A DNA stretch of 64,000 bases from an uncultured Dysgonomonas sp. GTDB taxonomy: Bacteria > Bacteroidota > Bacteroidia > Bacteroidales > Dysgonomonadaceae. This document shows, piece after piece, positions 15,679-34,781 of the stretch. The DNA lies in contig NZ_LT599032.1 of NCBI RefSeq assembly GCF_900079725.1, positions 4,088,054 to 4,152,053 of the forward strand, read 5' to 3'. The position numbers and the translations under genes were made by a program. How positions within the stretch are numbered: position 1 is the first letter of the stretch; the number at the start of each line of letters is the position of its first letter. The notes beneath the pieces were generated by a model. It was given only the letters and a program-made list of their open reading frames with translations. It did not search any database and was not told the origin of the DNA.

Positions 15679-16851
15679 TTATTCGATAGGATCTCCCGGG
15701 ACTTGTTTGCCGGGATCATAAATGGCAACCCCAACTTTAGAATCGGCACAACCATAGTATAGGAACCATTTGTTATTGAGATAGGCCAGTCCTTCTATAA
15801 AAACAGTCCCGTCGGTATATTGGCCGCTCTTTTCAAATTCGGCCATTGGGCGAAAGAAAGGAGTATCGAGCCGTCCGATGACTTTATATGGGTTCTGCAA
15901 ATCGAATAATATCTGTCCGGCGCTGTATGTTCCTGCATTGAAGCGCTCGTCACGCTTATCATCGGTTCTGTTCTTTCCATTATAGAGAAGCAGAATGCCT
16001 TTATCGGTCATTATCGCCGGAGGGCCGCACTCGGTAAGGGCGCTGTCGAAATACTTATAGCGTGGATAGATAAGGCCTTTCAGCTCGTTCTTTTCATTGA
16101 GGAGAGGAGTCCAGTTTATCAGGTCGGTCGATGTAGCGGCATTGATCATGTGTTCGCCCCAGTACATCAGATATGTCCCGTTTACTTTGGTAATTACGAG
16201 TTTATCGTCTACTACCTTGGTGACAATCGATGCTGATTTGCTCGCCAGGTCTTTGAAGCGGCCGTCATATGCTTTAGCGAAAGCCGGGCCGTGTTTCTCC
16301 CATGTGATGAGGTCTTTGGATGTGGCTACACATAGGCGGGGAATTTGCCGGTTCCATGCGGTGTACATCATTACAAATGTTCCGTCTTCGGTCATGGCAA
16401 CACGCGGGTCTTCGCAGCCGCCTTCCCATTCATATTCCTTATTGTTATCTTCAGCGGGATATAGCACAGGGGTATTGCGTAATTGCATAGTTATACCATC
16501 TGCACTTTCAGCTAAGCCTATACGGGATGTACGTTTGCCTATGCCTGTGGCGGAATTGTCTTCGGCACGGTATAAGACATAGATTTTCCCGTCTTTTACG
16601 ACTGCTGCCGGATTGAATGTATCACTTTCTTCCCATCCGACTGAATCTTTCCGCATAGGACAGAAGAATTTTGTAGCCGGATTAGGTTCTATTAGTGGAT
16701 TGACTCCGTCCGGACGGATAAATCCGCCAAAAGCCCATTCCGGAAGGTTGTTAGAGTTATCTGATACAGATGCTTTACTTTCTTTCTTACTACTGCAGGA
16801 AAGTATACTAAAACAGATGATCAGAATGAAAAGCGCTCCTAAGTGTTTCAT
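15679..16851 (-). CDS. GH130 family beta-mannoside-active lipoprotein
   Basis: The 390-residue product starts with a lipoprotein signal (MKHLGALFILIICFSILSCSSKK; Cys about residue 19). It then shows GH130 five-bladed-propeller motifs: FNPAAVVKDGKIYVLYRA, SRIGLAESADG, GGCEDPRVAM (with the catalytic Asp), and TSTDLINW. GH130 enzymes are either phosphorylases or hydrolases of beta-mannosides. At the position where phosphorylases have basic phosphate-binding residues this protein reads YLMYWGEH, which I take to favour a beta-1,2-mannosidase-type hydrolase; this is inference. It is the last gene of the PUL, separated from susD by a hairpin terminator and preceded by TATCTTTA near 16910. Confidence 0.85.
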   Translation of the reverse strand: MKHLGALFILIICFSILSCSSKKESKASVSDNSNNLPEWAFGGFIRPDGVNPLIEPNPATKFFCPMRKDSVGWEESDTFNPAAVVKDGKIYVLYRAEDNSATGIGKRTSRIGLAESADGITMQLRNTPVLYPAEDNNKEYEWEGGCEDPRVAMTEDGTFVMMYTAWNRQIPRLCVATSKDLITWEKHGPAFAKAYDGRFKDLASKSASIVTKVVDDKLVITKVNGTYLMYWGEHMINAATSTDLINWTPLLNEKNELKGLIYPRYKYFDSALTECGPPAIMTDKGILLLYNGKNRTDDKRDERFNAGTYSAGQILFDLQNPYKVIGRLDTPFFRPMAEFEKSGQYTDGTVFIEGLAYLNNKWFLYYGCADSKVGVAIYDPGKQVPGDPIE

Positions 16852-16984: not shown

Positions 16985-18916
16985 TTACCAATCTGGATTT
17001 TGTACCAGATTCACAGCCTTCTGTAACTCGGTTTGCATAATCGGCCAATAATAATGCTTAGGAGCCTCGAATACCCGTGTTTCCTTACAGAAACGTTCCA
17101 TTCTGTATTTCTTGCCTCCAACTTCGATTTTACCATTAGGATCTTCAACAGGCATCATCCCGTTGATCATGCGTTGGCATTTAGGATATGCTTGATGGTA
17201 TTGAGCCCAGTAGTTTTTAGACCTTTCGTTGTTTGTAGAACCAGCCGCCAGCCATTGTTGCTCTTTCTTTAACTCCGATTCGGATGTCGGTTCCAGATAC
17301 AAACGGCTATAGAATGTTCGCTTATTCTCATAGTAGAATTCCACACGACGCTCACGCTTTATGTATTCTCGCATCAGGTCTTTGTTTGTTTTACAGGCTA
17401 CTGGCATAGGTACCATAAAAGAGCGGGCCCTAACGGTATTCACCAGATCGTATATTGCCTGATTAGGTCCCGATACCTCATTTACAGCTTCAGCGTAGAT
17501 ATAGATGAATTCCGGTAATCGCCATACTGCAGGGGCACTAATGGAAACACTACCACTCCTGTTCCAGCCTTCTTGCAGATATTTGCGGTGATAATAACCG
17601 GTGGTGGTGGCATTACTTGCCCCGATTTTGTCACTGCCTGAGGCTGTATTTGTAACAGACGGATTATTCCCTCCATCGCGGAATGCCGCTCCGTGAAATA
17701 TAATATCACGGTAGAAACGAGGGTCGCGTCTGACTGACATATATGGATTAGTGTCATCATATCCGTCTGCTACGGCTTTACTGTCATAGATAGGATAACC
17801 GTATCCATCAGGAGATATATATTCATATTCATCTACTTGTTCCTGTACAGGTTGCTGACGGGATCCACCTCCACGGCTAGGAGGATACATATCACCAAAC
17901 CAACCTTCATGCTTGTCCTTTGTTACAAACCAGACGGCTTCGTTCTTGAATGCTTCTTCGTCGTAGAACATTTGCCAAAGACGGGTATATACAGTAGATC
18001 CGTTATAGTCTTTACCACCGCTGTCATTGAAATCAGCATTAGTATATTTGGTATAAAGGGAATAGCGTGGTTTGCCGTCTGCCTGAAAATCAAGCACAGC
18101 TTTAGCTGCATCGCGGGCAGCTTCCCAACGTTTGATATCGTAAGCGTACTCAGATTCAAATTCGCGTTTCCCTGTGTAACCGTAACTGGCAGCTCCGTTG
18201 TACATAGGTGCAGCAGCAGTCCATTTTGCGATAGCAATCAGCCCTAAACAAGCACCTTTGTCGGCACGGGCAAAATCTATCCCTGTCTGATTTGCAGGCA
18301 GTCGGTTCGCAGCTTCATTGGCATCGGCTGTAATCTTATCAACGATCGTATGTACAGATTCTTTCTTGAAGTCCATAGGTTGGTTGGCATCTACTACATA
18401 ATCGATATACGGTACTTCACCGTACATACGTACTAGCAGATAATGCAAATAGCCTCTGATGAAATATGCTTCTCCGACTCTTTTGTGCAAGTCGCCCGGA
18501 TTGATCGGATTGTCGGGAGTATTATACTTGGAAACTCCGGCAATGATTACATTAGCACGGCGTATAGTATTATAGATACCTTTCCAGAACATATCGTTGT
18601 TAGGCTGAGGTACAGCCGTAGGACTCCAGTCTCCGCTATTGTAACGGTTCGTGATGTTTCCCTCCACATTAGTTGCCTCAGCCTCATCGGTCAAGCCCGC
18701 AGAGGAAAAATGGGATAACCATGTCATTGGCGCATTACATCTTTTGGTTCTCAGGTACAAGTCCGTTACAAGCTGGTTTACCTTCTCATAACTGGCAAAG
18801 GTTTTTTCTTCAGGAATCTGATCATCGGGTTGCTTGTCCAGATATTCGCTACATGCAGCAAGAGATACCAACATGACTGCCAGCAGACCTCTTAATATAT
18901 ATTTGAAACTTTTCAT
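16985..18916 (-). CDS. SusD/RagB-family outer-membrane glycan-binding lipoprotein
   Basis: This 643-residue SusD-like protein has a lipoprotein signal (LLAVMLVSLAACSEYLDKQPDD, Cys about residue 22), the N-terminal TPR-type region with RANVIIAGVSKY and AYFIRGYLHYLLVRMYGEVPY, and a C-terminal RagB/SusD region ending in FEAPKHYYWPIMQTELQ. SusD proteins sit as a lid on the SusC porin and capture oligosaccharide. It begins 15 bp after the susC stop, so the two are an operon. Given the adjoining GH92 and GH130 genes, the ligand is probably a mannose-containing glycan. Confidence 0.95.
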   Translation of the reverse strand: MKSFKYILRGLLAVMLVSLAACSEYLDKQPDDQIPEEKTFASYEKVNQLVTDLYLRTKRCNAPMTWLSHFSSAGLTDEAEATNVEGNITNRYNSGDWSPTAVPQPNNDMFWKGIYNTIRRANVIIAGVSKYNTPDNPINPGDLHKRVGEAYFIRGYLHYLLVRMYGEVPYIDYVVDANQPMDFKKESVHTIVDKITADANEAANRLPANQTGIDFARADKGACLGLIAIAKWTAAAPMYNGAASYGYTGKREFESEYAYDIKRWEAARDAAKAVLDFQADGKPRYSLYTKYTNADFNDSGGKDYNGSTVYTRLWQMFYDEEAFKNEAVWFVTKDKHEGWFGDMYPPSRGGGSRQQPVQEQVDEYEYISPDGYGYPIYDSKAVADGYDDTNPYMSVRRDPRFYRDIIFHGAAFRDGGNNPSVTNTASGSDKIGASNATTTGYYHRKYLQEGWNRSGSVSISAPAVWRLPEFIYIYAEAVNEVSGPNQAIYDLVNTVRARSFMVPMPVACKTNKDLMREYIKRERRVEFYYENKRTFYSRLYLEPTSESELKKEQQWLAAGSTNNERSKNYWAQYHQAYPKCQRMINGMMPVEDPNGKIEVGGKKYRMERFCKETRVFEAPKHYYWPIMQTELQKAVNLVQNPDW

Positions 18917-18931
18917 ATTCTTGTTATTTTA

Positions 18932-21900
18932 TTAAAATGTAATATCCACACCAAAATTAAATACCTTCAATATAGGATACCAGTCTCCTCCTCCATTACG
19001 CATTTCAGGGTCTACATCTACATCTCCAAGTTTGTCCCATGTAGCCAGATTTTGAGCCTGAGCATATACTCTGACATTGCTTAGTCCTGCTACTCTTATT
19101 ATTTTTCGAGGCAGTGTATAACCAAGTTCTATATTCTTTAATCTTACATACGAACCATCGTACATGAATAGAGAACTGCTTTCATTCTTATTGTTAGAGT
19201 GCGTACCAATATGCAGAGCCGGATATTTGGCTGTCGCAGCAGTTTCTGGAGTCCATCTGTCGAGGTGCATAGGCCTTACGCGTCCTATCTTATCTTGGTC
19301 GAAATTAGGAAAATCGAATACTGCAGCATCTTTTAGCATGATGGTAGAGTTTGTCGCACCCTGGAAGAGTACACTAAAATCGAATCCCTTATATTGTAAT
19401 GTAATAGGTAATCCGAATTGGATCTCAGGGCTGCGGGGATATCCCATCGCCATGCGGTCATTCTGGTCGGTAATAACACCATCGCCATCCAGATCTTTGT
19501 AAACAGCATCTCCCGGTATCAAGGTTCCCCATGGCTGGTAACCATCAGCATTCAATCTGTCTGCTTCGGCTTGATCTGCTACAAAGTGATCGAACACATA
19601 AAGCATATTTACATCCAGAGCTTGCCCTGTCTTCCGTCTCCATGCATATTCATAGACAACTTCATTCATGTAATCCACTCTATTGCGGGCAAATGTAAAA
19701 TTGGGTTTGATAAAATATCTGAAATCTTTGCCTATCTTGTCAGACCATGTTACCTCAAATTCGAGACCATGATTTTTGACTTTACCTGAGTTTATACGAG
19801 GGGCGTCTTTTCCTACTATATCAGGGAAACCAAGTTTGTCTCCTGTCAGTTCGGTGAGGATGTCATACCTGTTTTCGTAGAAATAGTCAAATGAGAATCG
19901 TAATCTTTGTTTTAGAAAATTAGCATCTAGTCCAATGTTTAATTTTTTTGCTTTTTCCCATGTCAGTATTCTATTAGCCAAGCCACCTTCTCTCCATCCG
20001 CCGGGATTTGTATTGAAGCCACCTTCTCCAAAATTATAGCCTTCGCCTCCTTCGAAGAATTGTAGATAACCAAACCTTCCGCCCGGGAGTTTATCGCTAC
20101 CAACTAATCCGTATGAACCTCTGATCTTTAAGAAGTCCATCCATGATTTAGTGTTATTCATGAATGATTCATTGGAAATTACCCATCCCACAGATCCGGC
20201 AGGGAAAAATCCATAACGTTTTTCTTTAGCAAAATTCTCAGAACCATTGTATCCAAAGTTAAATTCCGCGAAATAACGGTCAGAGAAATTATAAGTAAAC
20301 TGTCCTGTCAGGCCCTGATATCTGTGGTCGGCACGAACTTTGTCTCCATCATATTGACCTTCTGTAGAGCGATTGAACAGAAACATTCCGGTCACATTAT
20401 GATTTTGTGCGAATGAGTTCTGATACATTAATTTTGCCTGATAGTATGTCCTGTTAGAAGGGTTACTCTGAGTGAAGTTATTACCTACCGTCTGGTCTGT
20501 GTTGTATTTATTACCGGTGGAATATACTCCGTCGTAATGACCGGGAGTCCTGTAAATGTCAATGCCATCTTTAGGCTTGAATGTAGCATAAGAAGGATAT
20601 TGGCGATACCCTTCACTATAAGTGTTGACCTCTCTTCTGGTCCATTGCTCTTCACGGGCATCATATGAGAAAGTTCCTTCGATTTTTAATCCTTTTGTAA
20701 TGAAGTCCAGGTCATATCCCATAGAGAAGCTACCTTCCAGATAAGTATATTTTTGAGTGTGATAACCCGAACGGGATAGTTCTCCCAATAGATTGAAACG
20801 ATAAATCTGGTCTCCGAACAGCATTCCTTTAGGATTGCTGACAAAATAGCTTTGATTGGCCGGATTATCGTTCTGTTCCAGTACAATCGGCAGATAAGGA
20901 GGCTGGGTCATTGCAATATTCACCAGACGGCTGGCTGCCGAACCAATATTTGTACGGTCTGTAATGCGTGCGCCCAAGTCGAGTTTCACCCAGAACTTAT
21001 CTGTAATGTCTACATCTATATTAGACCGGAAGTTATATTTCTTGAAATTAGGTGATGCATCATAATCGGATAGGTCTACATGTCTGTAATTGGTTCCCTG
21101 ATTCATATGTCCGGCCATAACAAAGTATCTGACCTTATCTGTACCTCCGCGAACCGACAGATTATAATCTTGCTGAGCGGCAGATTTGAACATATAATCG
21201 AAATAGTCCCAGTTGTATCCTAAACCATCAGAGTTGTCGCCTCTAGCCATTCTGAAATTGGCGATGGCCTCATCTGTAAATGGTTTTTTATAATTTTCCA
21301 GAGTTCCGTTCATCATCGCATCGTTTCGCGATGCTTCATTATATAGAGTGGCATAATCGGCAGAGCCTAATAAATTAGGGGTCTTACCTACTTTATTAAA
21401 TCCAAAAGAAGCCTTGAAGTTCACAGAAGCCTTTTCCGAAGCTTTACCGCGCTTGGTGGTAACAACTATAACTCCATTGGCTCCACGGATACCATAAGGT
21501 GCAGTAGAAGCAGCATCTTTCAATATGGTGAATGTTTCGATCTCGTCTGCTGCAAGGTAGGACATGTCGCGTTCTACTCCGTCAACGATTACGATGGGTG
21601 ATTGATCCCCATAAGTGGACTTTCCACGAATAAACAATTCGGATTTATCCACGCCCGGTTCTCCTCCGCTAAACTGGTTAACGATCAAACCCGGGAGTCT
21701 TCCCGCTAGCGCATTATTGATGTTTGCAGTAGGACTTTGTACAAGGTCTTTTGTGGTAATAGTTGCTACCGCACCAGTGATGTTTTCCCTTTTTTGAGTG
21801 GTGTATCCCACGACGACAACTTCATCCAGCGCCTTGATGTCCTCTACTAAATCAACATTTAATGTTGTTCTGCCTTTCAGTTCTATCTGTTGTGGCTGGA

Positions 21901-22192
21901 ATCCGATATATGAAAAAACAAGAGTTGCTTCGGCATACGGAACTTTTATGGAGAAATTACCATCTGCATCTGTCATAGTGGCAATGTTTGTCCCCTTTAC
22001 AGAAACGCTGACACCGGGCAATGTCTCTTTGCTGGAGCTATCGAAAACTTTCCCTGTCACTTCTTTTTGGGCTTGTTCGGTTTTGTGTACTGAAGCCGAG
22101 ATGTATTGCGGGCTTCCTATTGCTAATAATGTTATTATAAGCAATCCCGTTCTTATGCGCATAAATACTTTTTTAGTAAAAATGTCTTTCAT
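18932..22192 (-). CDS. SusC/RagA-family TonB-dependent outer-membrane transporter
   Basis: The product is 1086 residues. After a signal peptide (ending near SPQYISAS) comes a CarboxypepD_reg-like beta-sandwich domain (VTGKVFDSSSKETLPGVSV, about residues 43-120). Next is a TonB box-like stretch, ALDEVVVVGYTTQKRE, then a plug with the SusC signature PIVIVDGVERDMSYL and ILKDAASTAPYGIRGANGVI, and a 22-stranded barrel ending in FGVDITF. It lacks an N-terminal STN domain, so control by an anti-sigma/ECF pair is not expected. It imports oligosaccharide with the SusD partner. The 800 bp before it contain a dinucleotide tract and a perfect hairpin. Confidence 0.96.
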   Translation of the reverse strand: MKDIFTKKVFMRIRTGLLIITLLAIGSPQYISASVHKTEQAQKEVTGKVFDSSSKETLPGVSVSVKGTNIATMTDADGNFSIKVPYAEATLVFSYIGFQPQQIELKGRTTLNVDLVEDIKALDEVVVVGYTTQKRENITGAVATITTKDLVQSPTANINNALAGRLPGLIVNQFSGGEPGVDKSELFIRGKSTYGDQSPIVIVDGVERDMSYLAADEIETFTILKDAASTAPYGIRGANGVIVVTTKRGKASEKASVNFKASFGFNKVGKTPNLLGSADYATLYNEASRNDAMMNGTLENYKKPFTDEAIANFRMARGDNSDGLGYNWDYFDYMFKSAAQQDYNLSVRGGTDKVRYFVMAGHMNQGTNYRHVDLSDYDASPNFKKYNFRSNIDVDITDKFWVKLDLGARITDRTNIGSAASRLVNIAMTQPPYLPIVLEQNDNPANQSYFVSNPKGMLFGDQIYRFNLLGELSRSGYHTQKYTYLEGSFSMGYDLDFITKGLKIEGTFSYDAREEQWTRREVNTYSEGYRQYPSYATFKPKDGIDIYRTPGHYDGVYSTGNKYNTDQTVGNNFTQSNPSNRTYYQAKLMYQNSFAQNHNVTGMFLFNRSTEGQYDGDKVRADHRYQGLTGQFTYNFSDRYFAEFNFGYNGSENFAKEKRYGFFPAGSVGWVISNESFMNNTKSWMDFLKIRGSYGLVGSDKLPGGRFGYLQFFEGGEGYNFGEGGFNTNPGGWREGGLANRILTWEKAKKLNIGLDANFLKQRLRFSFDYFYENRYDILTELTGDKLGFPDIVGKDAPRINSGKVKNHGLEFEVTWSDKIGKDFRYFIKPNFTFARNRVDYMNEVVYEYAWRRKTGQALDVNMLYVFDHFVADQAEADRLNADGYQPWGTLIPGDAVYKDLDGDGVITDQNDRMAMGYPRSPEIQFGLPITLQYKGFDFSVLFQGATNSTIMLKDAAVFDFPNFDQDKIGRVRPMHLDRWTPETAATAKYPALHIGTHSNNKNESSSLFMYDGSYVRLKNIELGYTLPRKIIRVAGLSNVRVYAQAQNLATWDKLGDVDVDPEMRNGGGDWYPILKVFNFGVDITF

Positions 22193-22484: not shown

Positions 22485-22532
22485 GAAAACCTTCTTTCGA
22501 AGAACTGGTCAGTTCTTCGAAAGAAGGTTTTC
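22485..22532. promoter_or_regulatory. Perfect 23-bp hairpin upstream of susC
   Basis: The arms 22485-22507 and 22510-22532 are exact reverse complements with a 2-bp centre (GT), 48 bp in total. Neither strand continues with a strong T-run, so it is not a standard terminator. It sits just upstream of the candidate susC -7 region. Confidence 0.75.
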
Positions 22533-22608
22533 TTAATAGAAAAGAATAGTCGGATTTTATCTGTTATATCCGGCCTATTGTTTTTTTGTCTTTTTTTAGT
22601 TAATGTGT

Positions 22609-22656
<48 letters not shown>

Positions 22657-22988: not shown

Positions 22989-25283
22989 TTATTTCTCATT
23001 AGAGAATGAATAGGGATAATCTGCAGCATTTGTACCTCTTTTTATATTAGGGGTAGCAGCCATTTTGTAATTGATATTAGCCCCTTTCAGTAAGGTATCG
23101 TGAGTCAGGTAATTTTTACTATGAGCTTTACCATTGATAGCCATGGATGATATATACCTGTTCGCTTTATTGTTGTTTTCAGCCTTGATAACTACTTTCT
23201 TTCCGTTTTCGAGATTCAGAGTGACCGAGTTGAATAATGGCGATCCCAGTATATACTCATCAGAACCTGGGCATACTGGGTAGAACCCAAGTGCAGAAAA
23301 GACATACCAGGCCGATGTTTGTCCGTTATCTTCATCGCCGCAATACCCATCAGGATTGGGGTTGTAGAGTTTGTCCATTATTTCGCGTGCCCAGTATTGA
23401 GCTTTCCAGGGTTCGCCTGAGTAATTGTACAGGTAAACCATATGTTGTATCGGCTGGTTTCCATGTGCATACTGCCCCATGTCCATCACCTGCATTTCTC
23501 GCATTTCGTGAATCATGCCGCGGCTTTCCATCCCTTTACTTCCAGGTACTATGAATACGGAATCCATCATTGTATTGAATTCTTTTTTTCCTCCCATGAG
23601 GTCTATCAGACCTTGCGGATCGTGGAATACGCAGAAACTCCAGTGCCAGCTGTTACCTTCACAGAATGCGCGGCTCCAGTCTTCGGCTACAAATGTTTTA
23701 TCAAATTCACCGTTCTCATTGCGGCCTGTCATCAATTTGAACTTCGGATTGTAGAGATTCTTATAGTTCATGGCACGCTCTTTATATATGCTGGTTTCAC
23801 TTTCGGGTTTACCCAATGCTTTACCCAATCGGTAGATAGTCCAGTCGTCATATGCATATTCCAATGTACGTGCTGCGCTTTGCCCTATTCTGACATCATC
23901 CGGCACATAGCCTAGTTTGTTGTAATATTCATATCCCAGACGTCCTGATGCCGAAACTTTAGGATGTACATTATTTGCTCCGTGTTTCAGGGCTTCCCAT
24001 AGCGTTTCAATGTCGTAGCCTCTTAGTCCTTTCAGGTATGCATCAGCAACAACGGATGCAGAGTTGTTCCCTACCATAATATTGCGATGACCCGGGCTGG
24101 CCCATTCCGGTAAGAATCCGCTTTCCTTGTATGCGTTGACCAGACCTTCCTGCATTTTTTCGTTCATCGACGGATATACCAGATTCAGGAATGGGAATAA
24201 GCATCGGAATGTATCCCAAAAGCCAGTATCGGTAAACATATATCCCGGAAGGACTTCGCCATTATAAGGGCTGTAGTGAACAACTTCTCCTTTGGCGTCT
24301 ATCTCATAGAAACTGCGAGGGAATAGTACCGAACGGTAAAAACAGGAATAGAATGTACGAAGGTTGTCGATGTTGTCGTCTTTTACTTCTATCCGTCCTA
24401 ATGTTTCGTTCCAGACCTTGCGGCCTTTGTCGGCTATCTGGTCGAAGTTGTCACTGCCGAGTTCTTTGAGGTTTAGTTCGGCTTGTTCGGGACTTATAAA
24501 TGATGATGCCACACGTGCGTGAACAGCTTCACCTCTCTTTGTAGCGAAGCCGATAATAGCGCCTGTATGGTTTTCTTTAGCTTCAAGTTCGTTCTTACGG
24601 ATTTCGCTGTCTCCTACAGTTGCCTGATAGGTAAACGGCTTGTCGAAAACAATGACAAAATAGTTTTTGAAATTATCGGGTACGCCGCCGCTATTGCGTG
24701 TTGTGTAACCTATTATTTTGTTTTGTTCCGGAATAATTTTCACATAAGATCCCCGGTCGAAAGCATCTATAACAACATAGGAATTATCTTTCTCCGGGAA
24801 AGTGAAACGGAATATTGCCGCGCGGTCGGTTGGCGTTATTTCGGTTGTTATATCCGAATCGGCAAGATATACCTTATAGTAATATGGTTTTGCTACTTCC
24901 GATTTGTGCGAGAACCAGCTGGCCCGTTTGTCCTGATTGAAAACAGGTTTGTCTACAATCGGCATGATGGAGAATTGTCCGTAGTCGTTCATCCATGGGC
25001 TGGGTTGATGTGTTTGTTTGAATCCTCTGATTTTGTCGGCAGTATATACATACGACCAACCATTACCCATTTCCCCGGTCTGAGGCATCCAGAAATTCAT
25101 CCCCCAAGGACGGGCTATGGCCGGATACGTATTACCTGTCGATAGCTCAAATTTAGATAATGTCCCTGTCAGGATACTTACATAGTCTACCGGATCTGTC
25201 TTAATTTGTGCAACAGTAATAATTGCAAATAAGAAGAATATACCAGAAGTAATTGCTTTCTTAATCGTGTTTTTGATATTCAT
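22989..25283 (-). CDS. GH92 alpha-mannosidase, exported (canonical active site)
   Basis: The 764-residue exo-alpha-mannosidase has a signal peptide (ending near IITVAQIKTD). It then has the N-terminal beta-sandwich and the (alpha/alpha)6 GH92 barrel, with conserved GNNSASVVADAYLKGLRGYD, the general-acid loop CEGNSWHW and the base/calcium motif GDEDNGQTSAWYVFSALGFY. GH92 enzymes are Ca-dependent inverting exo-mannosidases acting on N-glycans or yeast mannan. It starts 26 bp after the stop of the second GH92 gene, so the two are co-transcribed. Whether the linkage is 1,2, 1,3 or 1,6 cannot be read from sequence alone. Confidence 0.94.
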   Translation of the reverse strand: MNIKNTIKKAITSGIFFLFAIITVAQIKTDPVDYVSILTGTLSKFELSTGNTYPAIARPWGMNFWMPQTGEMGNGWSYVYTADKIRGFKQTHQPSPWMNDYGQFSIMPIVDKPVFNQDKRASWFSHKSEVAKPYYYKVYLADSDITTEITPTDRAAIFRFTFPEKDNSYVVIDAFDRGSYVKIIPEQNKIIGYTTRNSGGVPDNFKNYFVIVFDKPFTYQATVGDSEIRKNELEAKENHTGAIIGFATKRGEAVHARVASSFISPEQAELNLKELGSDNFDQIADKGRKVWNETLGRIEVKDDNIDNLRTFYSCFYRSVLFPRSFYEIDAKGEVVHYSPYNGEVLPGYMFTDTGFWDTFRCLFPFLNLVYPSMNEKMQEGLVNAYKESGFLPEWASPGHRNIMVGNNSASVVADAYLKGLRGYDIETLWEALKHGANNVHPKVSASGRLGYEYYNKLGYVPDDVRIGQSAARTLEYAYDDWTIYRLGKALGKPESETSIYKERAMNYKNLYNPKFKLMTGRNENGEFDKTFVAEDWSRAFCEGNSWHWSFCVFHDPQGLIDLMGGKKEFNTMMDSVFIVPGSKGMESRGMIHEMREMQVMDMGQYAHGNQPIQHMVYLYNYSGEPWKAQYWAREIMDKLYNPNPDGYCGDEDNGQTSAWYVFSALGFYPVCPGSDEYILGSPLFNSVTLNLENGKKVVIKAENNNKANRYISSMAINGKAHSKNYLTHDTLLKGANINYKMAATPNIKRGTNAADYPYSFSNEK

Positions 25284-25309: not shown

Positions 25310-27577
25310 TTATTTATTCATACTGAATGATGGCGGTACAGCGTTATCGTCTGAGGCCCATTTTTTATTCGGATGTTTTCCCATAACCAGTTCTAACTTT
25401 CCGCCTTGCATCAGTTCTTCATGTGAGAACCATGATTTATTCCAATCTTTACCATTTAATTTCGCGGATTGAATGTATTTATTTTCAGGAGAGTAGTTAA
25501 TTGCCACCACTTCAAATGATTTGCCGTTGCCGATATTCAGTTTTGCACTCTCGAAAGTCGGACTTCCTATTACATACATCGGTAATCCGGGGGTAACGGG
25601 ATAAAATCCGATCTGCGAAAATACGACAAATGCGGTGAGGCCACCTCCGTCTTCATCGCCGGGAATACCCATCACATCGTTTCTGAACCATTGATTCAGC
25701 AGTGTGTGTACACGCTTTTGAGTACGCCAGGGCTGTCCTGCATAATTGTATAAATACGGAATGTGCATTGCAGGTTCGTTCCCCATCGAGAATTGCCCGA
25801 CATTACCGCTATGATCGGCATAAATATGATAAAAATCGGGTTTTCCTTTCCCCAGAGGGGTGCTGTACATATCTTCAAGTTCTTTTACAAAAGCGTCTTT
25901 TCCTCCGAGCATGCTTACTAAGTCTGCAATATTGTGTGGCACGTCCCAGCGATATACATATCCGGTATTTTCATCGTAAGCATCGCGTCCGCCAATACCC
26001 GGTGGAAAACGGTAATCAAGGTCTTCCATAAATTTGCCTGATGCATCTTTAGGATGGAAAAACTTAGTCTCGGGATTAAATACCTTATGGTAGTTTAGGC
26101 TACGTTTCGAGAAATAATCGGCTTCGTCATTCTTGCCTAATTGCTTTGCAATAAGCGACAGGCACCATTCATCGTAGACAGTACCCAGGGTAACAGCGAT
26201 AGGCTGGCGTCTTTCCCACCCGTGAACTTCCGGAGCTGTTTCCTTTTCTCCCTTTGCCAGGGAAGGGAAGTATCCGTGTTCTTTGTAGAACCGGTCTAAT
26301 ACTCCGGCGGGCTTGGATGACCAGGGAGCCAGTGTTTTTTCGGTGATTGCCGCTTTGCTCACATTGTATGCCTCTTCAAGATTGAATCCTCTCAATCCTT
26401 TTATGTAGGCATCGGCAACCATAGCTGCCCCGTGATTCGAATTCATACGGCGGCTGTCACCCGTCACTTCGGGGAAGTTTGGCATCCACGGATTTTTCAT
26501 CTGGCGGGTCATTACTATGTATGAGTTGACCATATCATCTTCCATCTCAGGCTCGATAATTATGCGCAACGGGTGTGTTGCACGGTAAGTATCCCAGATC
26601 CAGTCGTCGGTATAGAATGGACGGCCTTCGTCATTGTGGACTTTTCCATCATAGGCGCTAAAGTAATTCCCGTCTTCCGAAATGCAGATCATACGTTCGT
26701 AAGTACGGTAAAGAGAGGTGTAGAAAACTGTCTTGGCATTGTCATCGATACCCGAAACCTGTATCTTTCCCAGTGTTGAATTCCAGATGTCGCGGCCTTT
26801 TTGCGCCAGGTTTTCCAGATTATAGTCTTTTATTTCTCTCCTTAGATTATTTTTAGCCTGTTCGGAACTTATAAATGAGACTCCGTAACGCACCTTTATT
26901 TGTTTGGTTCCGGCAGGATATTTCATCACATAAAAAGCGTTCCGGCCTTGTGTGGTTTTTTCGTTGCTATTTATAGTATTTCCTTTGTGAGTTCCAACTT
27001 CTGAAGGTTGTATATCAGTTTCGAAGTAAATGTATACTTTTGTATTGTTGCTAAGATTCTGATATCCGTATACTGTATTTTTATCCGAATTGAGTTCCCC
27101 GTCCCGGGTATTGAGGATCAGATAAGCGGATTGATTACTATTTTCGAAATCGATGTAATAGATTCCTGCCTGATGTGACGGTGCATATTGGGCATGTATA
27201 TTATAATCGTCGAGATCGACACTGTAATAATATGGTTTTATGATTTCGTTGTCGTATCCGAAGTTGATTGTACTTTTTATATCTTCTACTGCTCCCTGAT
27301 ACGGGCTCAGATTAAAGGCAGAGCTTCCCCTATGGCTTGTGACGATCAGGGGAAGTCCTGCAATAGTATTGCCTGTATAATTTTCGCGTTCGGGATATAC
27401 CCTGAGCATACTATTAGGTAAATGTACAGTCGGATAGGTTGGCACCAAAAGGTGGCTTATATTACCGATGTATGGATTTACATAGTCGACAGGCTGACTA
27501 TTATTCTGGGCATTTATATTGCTTGTTAGTAAAAAGAGTAAAATTAAGGAGTAAGAGACGAATATACTTTTCTTCAT
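25310..27577 (-). CDS. GH92 family alpha-mannosidase, divergent
   Basis: I choose the ATG at 27577 (MKKSIFVSYSLILLFLLTSNINAQ, a proper signal peptide); a TTG at 27601 would add eight residues. The 755-residue product has the GH92 fold markers GAAMVADAYIKGLRGFN and GDEDGGGLTAFVVFSQIGFYPV. Two catalytic-site signatures differ from the canonical form: EGN-W at the acid loop is DENTGYVYRW (the Glu aligns, the Gly-Asn does not), and GQTSAW is GGLTAF. That points to a separate GH92 subfamily with another linkage or a modified mannose substrate. It is first in the PUL minus-strand cluster and divergent from the putative regulator. Confidence 0.88.
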   Translation of the reverse strand: MKKSIFVSYSLILLFLLTSNINAQNNSQPVDYVNPYIGNISHLLVPTYPTVHLPNSMLRVYPERENYTGNTIAGLPLIVTSHRGSSAFNLSPYQGAVEDIKSTINFGYDNEIIKPYYYSVDLDDYNIHAQYAPSHQAGIYYIDFENSNQSAYLILNTRDGELNSDKNTVYGYQNLSNNTKVYIYFETDIQPSEVGTHKGNTINSNEKTTQGRNAFYVMKYPAGTKQIKVRYGVSFISSEQAKNNLRREIKDYNLENLAQKGRDIWNSTLGKIQVSGIDDNAKTVFYTSLYRTYERMICISEDGNYFSAYDGKVHNDEGRPFYTDDWIWDTYRATHPLRIIIEPEMEDDMVNSYIVMTRQMKNPWMPNFPEVTGDSRRMNSNHGAAMVADAYIKGLRGFNLEEAYNVSKAAITEKTLAPWSSKPAGVLDRFYKEHGYFPSLAKGEKETAPEVHGWERRQPIAVTLGTVYDEWCLSLIAKQLGKNDEADYFSKRSLNYHKVFNPETKFFHPKDASGKFMEDLDYRFPPGIGGRDAYDENTGYVYRWDVPHNIADLVSMLGGKDAFVKELEDMYSTPLGKGKPDFYHIYADHSGNVGQFSMGNEPAMHIPYLYNYAGQPWRTQKRVHTLLNQWFRNDVMGIPGDEDGGGLTAFVVFSQIGFYPVTPGLPMYVIGSPTFESAKLNIGNGKSFEVVAINYSPENKYIQSAKLNGKDWNKSWFSHEELMQGGKLELVMGKHPNKKWASDDNAVPPSFSMNK

Positions 27578-27726
27578 ATTTTGTAGGAATGTTATATTCA
27601 AATAAGGGCCTATTCGATTTTAGGGTTAATATAAGCTGGAAATGTTTATACAAACATATATCTATACTATTAACCGGGGTATTAATTAATTATTAATTGG
27701 CGCAAAAAGGAACACTTTTGTCTTGT

Positions 27727-27947: not shown

Positions 27948-30524
27948 ATGAAAATTACCATACTTTTTGTTTTTATTTTTTGTCCTTTCCTTACTATTAT
28001 CTCACAATCCAAAGATATGGATAAAAGCTTTTCATATGGATTGAACTTTAAGTCTCATGAGGTAAATAAGGATGATAGGACTTCTCTTGATTTACTCCCC
28101 GATAAACCGCTAAAGTTAACCAAAGGATATACACTCGAATTTGATCTTAAACTTACAAACAGTAACCATACATACGGATATATATTAAGGATTATCGCAA
28201 ATGATACTACAAGCCTGGATATGACGTCTTACCTGGGGAATAATCGCATCAATGTTATACTTAACGGCATACATAATACAAAAGCCTCATCGGAATATAA
28301 ATACGAACGCAAACAACTGGAAGACAAATGGGTGAAAGTAAAGATCGAGGTTCGTACAGGTTCAGTGACATTTTCCATAGATGGAAAAGAAATATTGATT
28401 GATACACCGGATAATTCGCTGGGAATATCTACGATCGAAAAGATATACTTTGGGGCTAACAGGCATAAGTTTTTTTATACATCTGATGTTCCTCCTATGT
28501 CGGTAAAAAATATAGAAATCAAAGATGATAAAGGAAAAATTGTCCGTAGGTGGGATATGGGCAGGCATAATGTAGCTGCCGTATATGACGATACCAATGG
28601 ATACAGGGCCATAGTATCGAATGGCATATGGGAAATAGACAGGCATACAAACTGGAATAAGGACATGAGTTTGATTACCAGGAATATTTATCCCCAGATT
28701 GCGACGGATTCTATTAATAACAGAGTGTTTGTAGCTACAAATGATAGTTTATATATAATGCATCTGAAAAATAAGTCGGTACAACGTATAAAGGTCGATG
28801 GAGGGAGACCTTATCAGGGTGCATCCAGTTATCTTATTTACGACTATATAGCGGATAGGTTAGTCTCATACAGTATAAGCCATCCCGAGCTGATATTATA
28901 TAACTTTGATACCAACATGTGGTCGGGTAGCCCGTCGGATATGTCTTTGTATGTTCAGCACCACAACAAGTTTATAAATCCGGATACAGATCAATTGGTG
29001 GTATTTGGCGGTTATGGGCTGTATAGGTATAGCGCCGCTTTATCAACCTATAATTTGAATACAGGAGGGTGGGAGACAAAAGACCTTATAGACCAGTTAA
29101 GCCCCCGCTATTTGTCTTCGTTGGGTTATTTAGGTGACGGGCAGATTCTGGTGTTTGGCGGATATGGGAGTAAGACCGGATCGCAGGAGGCTTCATCGTA
29201 TAACCTTTATGATCTTCATTTGGTCGATACCAAGGCTAAAACCAGTAAGGGACTGGGTACACTCGACGGGATGCAGGAACCTTATGTTTTTGGCAATTCG
29301 ATGATAGTTAATATAAAGGAAAATAAATTCTATGTTCTGGCTAACAGGAGCGATGTGTATAAATCTTCGATACGCCTGATGGAAGTGAATATGAATGACT
29401 TTTCTTACCGGTTCCTGTCCGATTCCATACCATACAATTTTCAGGATACCGAGTCTTTTTGCGATATGTTCAGGTATAAGAATTCCACGATATATGCGGT
29501 TATATTACAAAGGACAGAAGGGGGAACATTTGAAATCGGTATATATTCATTGCTTTATCCGCCATTATCACAAACTGATATTTTGCAGGTACCTGGTGCA
29601 AGGAGTACATTCGGTAATTCTCCGGTAACTTATATAATTATAGGACTGTTCGTTATTGTAATTCTTGTGGTGATTTATCTGTTAAGAAGGAATAGAACGG
29701 AGAGAACAGGATCGTCCTCTGTTGTGGATGATAAAGCGTTCGTTTCTGCACCTGTATTGCCTCAGGTACCCCATATACATAAAGAAAAGAAACGCTCAAA
29801 AATATCGTTACTGGGTGGCTTTCAAATTTTCGATAGGGGAGGGAATGATATAACAGGCTTCTTCACTCCGGTAATCAGGCAGATGTTTTTAATGTGCTTG
29901 CTTGAATATATTGCTACGGGAAAAGGGGTGACATCTGAGCGTTTGGATGAGGAGTTTTGGTTTGATATGGATAAAAATAAGGCGACCAACAACCGAAATG
30001 TAAATATCCGTAAACTGCGACTCCTTCTTCAGGAAATAGGAGATGTAACTTTTCAGAAAGATAACAGCTACTGGCATGTAAGTATTGGGGACGATACTTT
30101 TTGCGATTATGTGACGGTAATGAATCTGTTACATGAAATATCATCTGCTGATAGAGTAATAGAAAAGCCGGTGATAGAGAAAATTATTGGAATTGCATCA
30201 GCTGGTTTGTTGTTGCCGAATATAGATAAGAGGTGGGTCGATAGATATCAGTCCGGTTATTCGGATCTGCTTATCACTACCTTACTGAAAGCGGCAAAAA
30301 CAGCAGAAATAAGGAACGATTTCCGTTTATTGGTAAAGTTGGCCGATGTAATACTTATCCATGATAGTATAGACGAAGATTCTGTGCAGATCAAATGCCG
30401 GAGTTTATATAAGTTGGGGCAAAAGGGTTTATCTAAGCAATGCTATGATAAATTTTGTCTGGATTATAAGAGTATCCTGAACGAAGAACCACAACTTAAA
30501 TACGACTCTATTATCTCGGAATAA
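27948..30524 (+). CDS. Transmembrane one-component regulator: lectin-like + kelch-like sensor, SARP/BTAD-like output
   Basis: The 858-residue protein starts with a signal peptide (MKITILFVFIFCPFLTIISQS). Residues ~25-205 look like a concanavalin/LamG-type beta-sandwich (TLEFDLKLTNSN, WVKVKIEVRTGSVTFSIDGK). Residues ~220-550 carry kelch-like propeller repeats (LVVFGGYGLYRYSAALSTYN, ILVFGGYGSKTG). One membrane helix follows at about 562-581 (IIIGLFVIVILVVIYLL, then RRN). From ~617 the cytoplasmic part reads SLLGGFQIFDRGGNDITGFF, then ERLDEEFWFDMD and NVNIRKLRLLLQEIG, which matches the winged helix of SARP/OmpR-type activators. A helical BTAD/TPR-like region follows. It lacks histidine-kinase or receiver domains. 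Its place opposite the GH92 cluster suggests it senses glycan outside and activates the PUL directly; that role is inference. Confidence 0.8.
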   Translation: MKITILFVFIFCPFLTIISQSKDMDKSFSYGLNFKSHEVNKDDRTSLDLLPDKPLKLTKGYTLEFDLKLTNSNHTYGYILRIIANDTTSLDMTSYLGNNRINVILNGIHNTKASSEYKYERKQLEDKWVKVKIEVRTGSVTFSIDGKEILIDTPDNSLGISTIEKIYFGANRHKFFYTSDVPPMSVKNIEIKDDKGKIVRRWDMGRHNVAAVYDDTNGYRAIVSNGIWEIDRHTNWNKDMSLITRNIYPQIATDSINNRVFVATNDSLYIMHLKNKSVQRIKVDGGRPYQGASSYLIYDYIADRLVSYSISHPELILYNFDTNMWSGSPSDMSLYVQHHNKFINPDTDQLVVFGGYGLYRYSAALSTYNLNTGGWETKDLIDQLSPRYLSSLGYLGDGQILVFGGYGSKTGSQEASSYNLYDLHLVDTKAKTSKGLGTLDGMQEPYVFGNSMIVNIKENKFYVLANRSDVYKSSIRLMEVNMNDFSYRFLSDSIPYNFQDTESFCDMFRYKNSTIYAVILQRTEGGTFEIGIYSLLYPPLSQTDILQVPGARSTFGNSPVTYIIIGLFVIVILVVIYLLRRNRTERTGSSSVVDDKAFVSAPVLPQVPHIHKEKKRSKISLLGGFQIFDRGGNDITGFFTPVIRQMFLMCLLEYIATGKGVTSERLDEEFWFDMDKNKATNNRNVNIRKLRLLLQEIGDVTFQKDNSYWHVSIGDDTFCDYVTVMNLLHEISSADRVIEKPVIEKIIGIASAGLLLPNIDKRWVDRYQSGYSDLLITTLLKAAKTAEIRNDFRLLVKLADVILIHDSIDEDSVQIKCRSLYKLGQKGLSKQCYDKFCLDYKSILNEEPQLKYDSIISE

Positions 30525-33411: not shown

Positions 33412-33960
33412 TTGGACAAAAAACTTTGGGGTTTATTTATGAATAAAACACATTCCTTTTCCGACCGTCTCATGTATATGCATCTGCTTGAAGACGGTTA
33501 CAGTATCAATTACGTAAGTACAAAGTATGGGATCGGTTTTAAGCTCTTAACTTGTTTGTGGATTCAGTATAAGCAGCATGGTTTAGAAGCCTTACGCAAA
33601 AAGAAGAATATTTGTGCAAGTGGAGAGCTAAAGCGTACAATAGTCTCCGATATTGAAAATAATCATTTATCTTTGGTTGAAGCTTCGTTAAAATATGGAG
33701 CAAGCGACAGCCGTATATCCACTTGGCTACGGATAGCCAGAACTGACGGTTTGAATGCGCTTGATATTACAAAAAAACGAGGCCGCGCAAAAGGTATGGG
33801 AAGACCTAAGAAGAAAGCACCTGAGACGGAACTCGAAAAGCTCCGTGAAGAGAATCTTAAGCTCAAAATAGAGAATGAGCTATTAAAAAAAGTGAAAGCC
33901 TTAGTCGAAGAAAAGGAAGCCCGTCTACGCAAGATTGGGCGCAAGCCATCCAAGGACTAA
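33412..33960 (+). CDS. IS3-family transposase OrfA
   Basis: The 182-residue product has helix-turn-helix regions of the IS3 OrfA type (EDGYSINYVSTKYGI and LVEASLKYGASDSRISTWLR) and ends in a leucine-zipper-like coiled coil (LEKLREENLKLKIENELLKK). At 33885-33891 the zero frame reads A AAA AAA followed by G, a classical -1 slippery site. Shifting there opens the frame of OrfB at once. OrfA alone should regulate and bind the ends. Confidence 0.9.
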   Translation: MDKKLWGLFMNKTHSFSDRLMYMHLLEDGYSINYVSTKYGIGFKLLTCLWIQYKQHGLEALRKKKNICASGELKRTIVSDIENNHLSLVEASLKYGASDSRISTWLRIARTDGLNALDITKKRGRAKGMGRPKKKAPETELEKLREENLKLKIENELLKKVKALVEEKEARLRKIGRKPSKD

Positions 33961-34004
33961 GGCAGAAAGGTCATGATCTTCAAACAATACTGAGGATCCA
34001 TGGG

Positions 34005-34781
34005 ATGGCTCGCTCAACCTTCTATTATCATATATCCCGTATTAACAGCACAGACAAATATGCTGATATAAGAAAACGTATAGTTGATATTTTTGAAGCT
34101 CACCACAAACGTTATGGGTATCGTCGGGTGTATATGCAGCTCCTAAATGAGGGATATTTGATTAATCATAAGACGGTGCAAAAACTTATGGCAGAAATGC
34201 ATCTGAAATCAAAAGTCCGTAAGGTAAAATATAAGTCATATAAAGGAGAAGTTGGCAGGATTGCTCCTAACGTACTTAATCGTGACTTTAAAGCTGAAAA
34301 GCCATACCGAAAATGGGCTACAGATGTTACTGAATTTAAAATTGAGGGTAAGAAGGCATATCTTTCTCCTATTATTGATATGTTCAATGGGGAAATCATA
34401 TCTTATACCATATCCGACAGTCCTGATTTAAAGATGGTTATGGATATGATAAAAAAGGCTCAAAATAAAGTGAACATAACCGGCGAACTTATTTTGCACT
34501 CAGATCAGGGATATCATTATCAACATAAGCAATATCAGATGACACTTAAAAAGAATGGAATTATACAAAGCATGTCTCGCAAAGGTAATTGTTTGGATAA
34601 CGCTGTTATGGAGAATTTCTTTGGCATTATGAAGTCTGAATTACTATATTTGAAGAAATTTAAGAGCATCAGTGAGTTTAAAAAGGAACTGACAGAATAC
34701 ATCGAGTATTATAATAATGAGAGAATCAAACTTAAATTAAAAGGAAAGAGCCCGGTAAAATACCGAACTCTATACACTTGA
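34005..34781 (+). CDS. IS3-family transposase OrfB (DDE integrase domain)
   Basis: From the ATG at 34005 this is 258 residues. By -1 frameshifting at 33885-33891 the frame extends back to the slippery site (38 codons), giving the OrfAB transposase. It includes HTH_21 (AHHKRYGYRRVYMQLLN) and an RNase H-fold integrase core with the acidic triad in KWATDVTEF, LHSDQGYHYQ and LDNAVMENFFG. The C-terminus EYIEYYNNERIK is typical for IS3/IS150-group enzymes. Nothing suggests decay. Confidence 0.93.
   Translation: MARSTFYYHISRINSTDKYADIRKRIVDIFEAHHKRYGYRRVYMQLLNEGYLINHKTVQKLMAEMHLKSKVRKVKYKSYKGEVGRIAPNVLNRDFKAEKPYRKWATDVTEFKIEGKKAYLSPIIDMFNGEIISYTISDSPDLKMVMDMIKKAQNKVNITGELILHSDQGYHYQHKQYQMTLKKNGIIQSMSRKGNCLDNAVMENFFGIMKSELLYLKKFKSISEFKKELTEYIEYYNNERIKLKLKGKSPVKYRTLYT

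What the first reader, a model, noticed from the sequence alone, without database searches (positions are those of the whole stretch)
27948..30524. Membrane-spanning regulator with lectin-like and kelch-like sensor fused to a SARP/BTAD-like activator
The sequence shows a signal peptide, a LamG-like sandwich, kelch-like repeats, a single membrane helix and then a cytoplasmic winged helix with SARP-type spacing plus a helical BTAD-like end. Bacteroidetes PULs are usually run by hybrid two-component systems, SusR-type proteins or ECF/anti-sigma pairs. None of these is nearby, whereas this gene is divergent from the GH92 cluster. A one-component glycan sensor passing signal straight through the membrane to a SARP-type DNA-binding domain would be a distinct class of PUL control. 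The domain reading is from motifs; the regulatory role is inference.
Basis: partly seen in the sequence, partly recalled or inferred. Interest (0 to 1): 0.78.

Follow-up and report, generated by a model that had tools for sequence, protein, structure and literature searches.

The report
Membrane sugar sensor that binds DNA
This bacterium appears to carry a one-piece membrane protein that senses sugar chains outside the cell and, through a DNA-binding end of a kind best known from antibiotic control in Streptomyces, switches on the neighbouring sugar-digestion genes from a recognisable DNA site; it looks like a so far unnamed class of regulator for polysaccharide utilization genes.

Summary
The gene (27948-30524, +) encodes signal peptide, LamG-like domain, kelch propeller, one membrane helix, then a cytoplasmic winged helix plus BTAD. 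AlphaFold models the C-terminal part at pLDDT 96, and solved SARPs (AfsR, EmbR) are its only clear structural matches. The interpretation also holds, and I can add the missing step. Relatives occur in Bacteroidales and in Persicobacter, often beside SusC/SusD and GH92/GH125/GH3/GH95 genes. In 54 of 85 testable loci the adjoining promoter gap carries a shared operator: three direct repeats of a GGTTAA-like heptamer, typically 12 then 11 bp apart, placed before the polysaccharide-locus promoter, in many cases 9-10 bp from its -7 box and in place of the -33 element. That is the SARP operator layout. Here it lies at 27668-27697, before the GH92 operon; the exact triplet occurs once in the 5.2-Mb genome. 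I read the protein as a ligand-controlled, membrane-bound SARP-type activator of its neighbouring PUL. Anatomy, linkage and operator rest on computation; ligand, DNA binding and activation are inferred. The topology resembles SusR; output domain and operator match none of the three PUL-regulator types I found in print. New variant of a known kind, directly testable.

The parts
27948..30524 (+). Kelch-SARP regulator gene, 858 aa
   Evidence: full-length relatives
27948..28010 (+). signal peptide (about residues 1-21)
   Evidence: read from the sequence; no signal-peptide program was run; low-confidence helix in the model
28029..28562 (+). LamG/concanavalin-like sandwich, residues 28-205; least conserved folded domain (mean pairwise identity 0.25)
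28605..29582 (+). kelch beta propeller, residues 220-545
29622..29693 (+). single membrane helix, residues 559-582, followed by RRNRTER (inside)
   Evidence: and sequence; no topology program was run
29796..30092 (+). SARP/OmpR-type winged helix, residues 617-715; best conserved domain (mean pairwise identity 0.41)
30093..30521 (+). BTAD-like helical domain, residues 716-858
27668..27697 (-). operator: three heptamers TATTAAC (27668), TATTAAT (27680), TATTAAT (27691), read on the + strand, 12 and 11 bp apart; placed to serve the minus-strand GH92 promoter
27651..27658 (-). -7 box TATGTTTG (TAnnTTTG) of the GH92 operon, 9 bp from the nearest heptamer
   Evidence: TAnnTTTG is kept in both orthologous gaps aligned
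25310..27577 (-). GH92 alpha-mannosidase, first gene of the divergent operon (in-frame ATG at 27577)
22989..25283 (-). GH92 alpha-mannosidase, second gene
18932..22192 (-). SusC/RagA TonB-linked receptor
16985..18916 (-). SusD/RagB lipoprotein
15679..16851 (-). GH130, NCBIfam equivalog of beta-1,2-mannosidase BT3780
   Evidence: E 7.6e-204

Best explanation
It is a one-component, single-pass membrane regulator of the neighbouring mannan-type polysaccharide utilization locus. The LamG sandwich and kelch propeller lie in the periplasm and bind a ligand, most likely an oligosaccharide released from alpha-mannan (inferred). The SARP-type winged helix plus BTAD lies in the cytoplasm (fold shown by model and structure match; side of the membrane inferred). 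It binds three direct heptamer repeats 12 and 11 bp apart in front of the PUL operon (operator shown by comparison; binding inferred). Because the repeats sit 9-10 bp upstream of the -7 box and occupy the place of the -33 element, bound protein would stand in for the missing -33 contact and recruit RNA polymerase, as AfsR does (inferred). Ligand binding would change subunit packing across the membrane and so switch DNA binding or activation (inferred).
For: Fold. Linkage: SusD in 33 of 49 same-family loci of 19 kb or more against 4 of 20 random regions (P 4e-4). Next-door genes: GH92 in 6 of 96 upstream and 9 of 95 downstream places, a SusC-size receptor in 4 and 12; among the rest GH3 (7 of 85), GH125 (3 of 85), GH95 (6 of 70). 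Two Persicobacter relatives (another class, 23-25% identity) stand beside GH92 and a TonB receptor, and among two GH92 and a GH125. Operator: promoter-directed triplets of [GA]TTA at 11-12 bp in 34 of 57 divergent gaps (shuffles: mean 1.0, maximum 4) and 22 of 43 co-directional downstream gaps (mean 0.5, maximum 2); spacing windows that share neither 11 nor 12 give 0-2, those sharing one of them 2-11. With stricter [GA][GA]TTA, promoter-directed against opposite sense is 20 against 2 of 57 and 11 against 2 of 43. Gaps next to the gene 70 of 132 against 13 of 260 other promoter gaps of the same loci; strict 39 of 132 against 1 of 260 (either sense). Whole-genome scan for GGTTA x3 at 12/11: 14 matches in 101 genomes, 13 beside one of these genes, 2 for the reversed control. 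Of 63 CAAA words within 40 bp before the arrays 32 lie at offset 17 or 18, i.e. a -7 box 9-10 bp away; in 30 of 32 loci so placed no TTTG stands 16-24 bp upstream of the box. This protein's own TATTAAY triplet occurs once in its 5.2-Mb genome. SARP operators: repeats 11 or 22 bp apart, 3' repeat 8 bp from the -10 (PMC10936776, passages); PimR: three heptamers with 4-bp spacers (PMC5930380, passages).
Against: No binding, expression or ligand data. 31 of 85 eligible loci show no array by the core criterion (15 further loci had no testable gap), including two of this genome's five members (L096, L102; L102 has a weaker 10/11 repeat, p 0.045), and outside the family only 8 of 22 have one. With the loose [GA]TTA unit the opposite sense also scores: 8 of 57 and 17 of 43 (ATTAAT is its own complement). 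The de novo repeat test was modest: 16 of 98 upstream gaps under p 0.05, 7 under 0.01. The array was found in these loci, so enrichment there is partly circular; the genome-wide, spacing and orientation tests are less so. For the window gap alone the triplet has p 0.010, for its two orthologues 0.040 and, with one heptamer base changed, 0.204. CAAA also piles up at offsets 29 and 40 (15 and 7 of 63), perhaps from longer arrays, and the -7 box was judged by TTTG alone in that count. A looser whole-genome pattern with the -7 box is near background (in this genome 4 matches, 2 at these loci, against 2 for the control). Loci are related and were not thinned. Some relatives have no Sus profile hit in the locus.
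Confidence: 0.82

Rival explanations
1. Same protein and operator, but it acts as a repressor that is released from the -33 region by the glycan signal.
For: An array covering the -33 place would also block polymerase.
Against: 30 of 32 loci with a placed -7 box lack TTTG at the -33 place, so the promoters look activator-dependent; SARPs are described as activators (PMC10936776, passages).
Confidence: 0.1
2. The operator is bound by some other regulator, and the kelch protein only shares the locus (accessory sensor or glycan-binding protein).
For: DNA binding was not tested; recognition-helix residues could not be tied to operator sequence.
Against: 13 of 14 genome-wide GGTTA triplets in 101 genomes lie beside one of these genes; the layout is the SARP layout and the protein has the SARP fold; the only other DNA-binding families seen among the window proteins scanned are a LytTR protein and transposase-type HTH frames.
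Confidence: 0.06
3. A kelch-domain enzyme of the galactose-oxidase kind with a decayed or irrelevant C-terminal domain.
For: Pfam describes its Kelch_4 match as galactose oxidase central domain.
Against: The winged helix is the best conserved domain of the family and is kept behind other sensors too; copper ligands were not checked.
Confidence: 0.02

Closest known systems
SARP family (AfsR, EmbR, PimR)
   Different: domain at the C terminus behind a membrane helix and an outside sensor; Bacteroidota; spacing 12 then 11 bp; PUL genes instead of antibiotic genes; 12-15% identity in the structural alignments
SusR-like PUL regulators
   Same: one-component, sensor in the periplasm, DNA-binding part in the cytoplasm at the C terminus; local PUL control (PMC3878776, passages)
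   Different: SusR's DNA-binding part is described there as without significant similarity to other known factors, with predicted motifs of two sites 67 or 77 bp apart; here a SARP domain and three repeats 12/11 bp apart. Direct comparison with SusR was not made
Hybrid two-component systems (HTCS)
   Same: large periplasmic sensor in one polypeptide with a DNA-binding output, PUL-linked (propeller sensor recalled)
   Different: no kinase or receiver domain found; output not AraC-type
ToxR/CadC-type transmembrane regulators
   Same: OmpR-type winged helix in a one-component membrane protein (recalled)
   Different: opposite order and topology; BTAD present. In the survey PMC10269533 the main text holds no SARP, BTAD or kelch (term search)

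Membership tests
SARP | OmpR-type winged helix followed by BTAD | tested here: met
   weak sequence support
SARP | operator of direct repeats 11 or 22 bp apart, 3' repeat 8 bp from the -10 element | tested here: met
   approximately: 12/11 bp and 9-10 bp from the -7 box; rule from PMC10936776 passages. Comparative, no binding data
SARP | SARP domain at the N terminus of the protein | tested here: not met
   it is C-terminal behind a membrane helix, so filed as a SARP-like output domain, not as a classical SARP
SARP | activates by contacting sigma region 4 and polymerase | not testable with these tools
   -
SusR-like | periplasmic N-terminal sensor, membrane span, C-terminal DNA-binding part | tested here: met
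   model and sequence; sides of the membrane inferred
SusR-like | homology to the SusR DNA-binding domain | not tested
   no SusR sequence was fetched
HTCS | histidine kinase and receiver domains in the same chain | tested here: not met
   no such Pfam match up to E 1
ToxR/CadC-type | N-terminal cytoplasmic winged helix, C-terminal outside sensor | tested here: not met
   order is reversed
kelch propeller | kelch repeats and propeller fold | tested here: met

The most novel reading that the evidence does not exclude
A fourth class of PUL control in Bacteroidota: membrane-bound kelch-SARP proteins, each serving its own PUL through a three-heptamer operator that replaces the -33 element, so that a glycan signal outside the cell is turned into SARP-type polymerase recruitment at the membrane without phosphate transfer or an alternative sigma factor. 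The same output module is fused to other sensors and reused at other loci.
Probability: 0.78. Interest if true: 0.85.

Novelty: new variant of a known kind. Interest (0 to 1): 0.8.

Why it matters
PUL control in Bacteroidota is described as SusR-like, HTCS or ECF/anti-sigma (PMC3878776, passages). A family whose output domain is present in 41 of 101 genomes of the family, and which as a protein is found in 16 of 295 genomes of the order, would add a fourth, with a predicted DNA site for many members. It gives a route to the targets and substrates of PULs that lack an assigned regulator, and a SARP-type system that works from the membrane, which would let one ask how a tethered activator contacts polymerase.

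Tried and rejected
Single-sequence Pfam, NCBIfam and PDB sequence searches, and a profile search of PDB sequences, did not find the winged helix or BTAD; one search's best rows are saposins, E 0.04 and above. A link between recognition-helix residues and operator sequence was sought by mutual information over 71 loci; the top 20 columns are scattered over the whole protein and none lies in the recognition helix, so nothing is claimed. The looser pattern with the -7 box is near its control and was not used for counts. No operator was found in the gap between the second GH92 and SusC; how SusCD is read is open. GH92 alone is not significantly enriched against 20 controls (17 of 76 against 2 of 20, P 0.18). 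The SusC profile also picked up about 600-aa proteins, apparently through a carboxypeptidase-regulatory domain, so SusD is used for the claim. Searches of the paper library aimed at this protein kind (listings only) showed no paper on it; only open-licence papers are held and searches listed 15 of 36 and 12 of 23, so this does not show that none exists. In the Persicobacter gap the array search found nothing.

Rows dropped: one search tested 98 of 100 loci (2 short gaps); one search counted 60 divergent gaps with contig-end cases, another the 57 with a certain divergent neighbour; one search used 43 downstream gaps (3 short ones, L173, L181, L190, and 2 with runs of N left out). L006 is the same contig as L091 and was left out of the counts from then on; the 101 loci include it. 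Near-duplicate loci were not thinned. Loci were taken from three searches of differing depth, so they are not an even sample. Gene calls in the loci are longest open frames, not a gene finder's.

Full report
What the gene is. The frame 27948-30524 is intact, 858 aa. Pfam sees kelch repeats and a weak laminin-G domain and nothing in the last 240 residues. The genome (one contig, 5.2 Mb) holds five full-length members, this one and four paralogues at 25-38% identity, and a Dysgonomonas MAG (UBA7710) has a 90% identical orthologue in the same setting, GH92-GH92 / gene / metG. With relatives aligned, AlphaFold gives a beta sandwich, a propeller, a helix at 559-582 and a confident C-terminal domain. 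Foldseek and VIA-align place that domain with AfsR and EmbR, with no other row at comparable score.

Distribution. The C-terminal domain is found in 41 of 101 genomes of the family (67 places, mostly frames of about 840-900 aa) and in 30 of 395 genomes drawn over the phylum at a loose cut-off (E 1e-5); the whole protein as query matched in 16 of 295 genomes of the order. These counts include the window's own genome. Some relatives carry the same C-terminal domain behind other sensors: LamG with an untyped N-terminal part (L020, L021, and a Parabacteroides distasonis plasmid protein) or short untyped ones (L019, L027). The short variant in L112 lies beside an LRR protein, a DcuC carrier, an amidohydrolase, a porin and an M14 carboxypeptidase, so the output module is not confined to glycan loci.

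Linkage. Among 100 loci of up to 20 kb around these genes, neighbours were typed with profiles grown from the window's own SusC, SusD, GH92 and GH130. Of the 76 loci of 19 kb or more 41 hold SusD, 33 of the 49 in the same family, against 4 of 20 random regions of the same genomes (P 0.006 and 4e-4). In this genome the five genes lie 7.5 to 11.8 kb, middle to middle, from the nearest of 59 SusD matches, mean 10.0 kb, P 0.004 by random placement. Next-door genes not already typed were scanned with Pfam (85 upstream, 70 downstream) and include GH3 (7), GH125 (3) and GH95 (6). tblastn found five plasmid records: a Persicobacter relative on pPP5, annotated hypothetical and without a Pfam match at E 0.001, sits next to GH92 and a TonB receptor, and one on pPP1 among two GH92 and a GH125 (the other two Persicobacter records were not opened). 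The alpha-mannan theme thus reaches another class. The window PUL also encodes a GH130 that NCBIfam names a BT3780-type beta-1,2-mannosidase; that BT3780 belongs to a yeast-mannan PUL is recalled.

The operator. The 370-bp gap between the GH92 start (27577) and the gene (27948) carries TATTAAC-N5-TATTAAT-N4-TATTAAT at 27668-27697. The same layout, with cores GGTTA, GATTA, CATTA or TATTA, recurs at other loci. The heptamers are 12 and 11 bp apart and lie 9-10 bp from a CAAAnnTA-like word on the side of the divergent gene, which is its -7 box TAnnTTTG on the other strand (consensus: PMC7366714, passages). In co-directional loci the array turns round and sits behind the regulator gene, before the GH92, GH95 or other gene it would serve; L092 and L095 have both. 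Counts, shuffles, spacing and orientation controls are and stand under evidence for and against. The genome-wide scan is the cleanest test: GGTTA three times at 12/11 bp occurs 14 times in 101 genomes, 13 of them beside one of these genes (the exception, in G341, has none), against 2 for the reversed pattern; one of the 13, in G322, lies in a downstream gap that played no part in finding the pattern. The exact TATTAAY form occurs once in this genome, here; one further place has two mismatches, and the reversed control has one match. In the Persicobacter pPP5 gap the search found no array; by eye there are two pairs of TAA words 11 bp apart, the last 11 bp before TATATTTG. This is not a counted result.

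Mechanism. SARPs bind direct repeats a helical turn apart, the 3' repeat 8 bp from the -10; AfsR overlaps the -35 and contacts sigma region 4 (PMC10936776, passages), and PimR uses three heptamers with 4-bp spacers (PMC5930380, passages). The operator here has that layout, and 30 of 32 loci with a placed -7 box lack TTTG at the -33 place. The winged helix is the best conserved domain and the LamG part the least conserved folded one (mean pairwise identity 0.41 and 0.25), as expected if the DNA site is shared and the ligand differs. The step from ligand to DNA is not shown.

What is known. Three PUL-regulator types are named in print (SusR-like, HTCS, ECF/anti-sigma; PMC3878776, passages). No HTCS or sigma/anti-sigma match appeared among 38 window proteins scanned, the target included; five of them had no family at the limits used (frames of 949, 584, 310, 606 and 188 aa), and a SusR-like protein might not show in Pfam. 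The survey of transmembrane regulators (PMC10269533, term search of the main text) does not hold SARP, BTAD or kelch. I file it as a new variant: SusR-like topology, SARP-like output and operator, kelch/LamG sensor.

Noticed in passing
33412-34781: IS3-like element (HTH_28 frame plus rve integrase frame) between ecotin and a LytTR/LiaF-like group; the map of the UBA7710 locus lacks it.
   Followed up: partly
22485-22655: The gap between the second GH92 gene and SusC holds a 46-base GA run (22610-22655) and a perfect inverted repeat of 23 bases per arm (22485-22532); possible slippage tract and attenuator or terminator.
   Followed up: partly
L142, gap before GH92 about 5.1 kb downstream of the regulator start: Two oppositely directed arrays with -7 boxes in a second promoter gap of the same locus, suggesting a regulon beyond the adjacent promoter.
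   Followed up: no
L114, L129, L130, L140, L141, L144, L147, L148, L153, L156: A recurrent protein of 601-620 aa picked up by the SusC profile, probably through a carboxypeptidase-regulatory domain, is divergent from the regulator and followed by a gene of about 480-500 aa and SusCD; its role is unknown.
   Followed up: no
L112, L099, L125, L175: Short relatives (about 480-530 aa) with another sensor stand in clusters without a Sus profile hit; L112's holds DcuC carrier, amidohydrolase, porin and M14 carboxypeptidase genes, L175's an M14 carboxypeptidase (only L112 and L175 scanned).
   Followed up: partly
G341:C1:3308278-3308305: The one GGTTA triplet in a genome without a detected kelch-SARP gene.
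   Followed up: no
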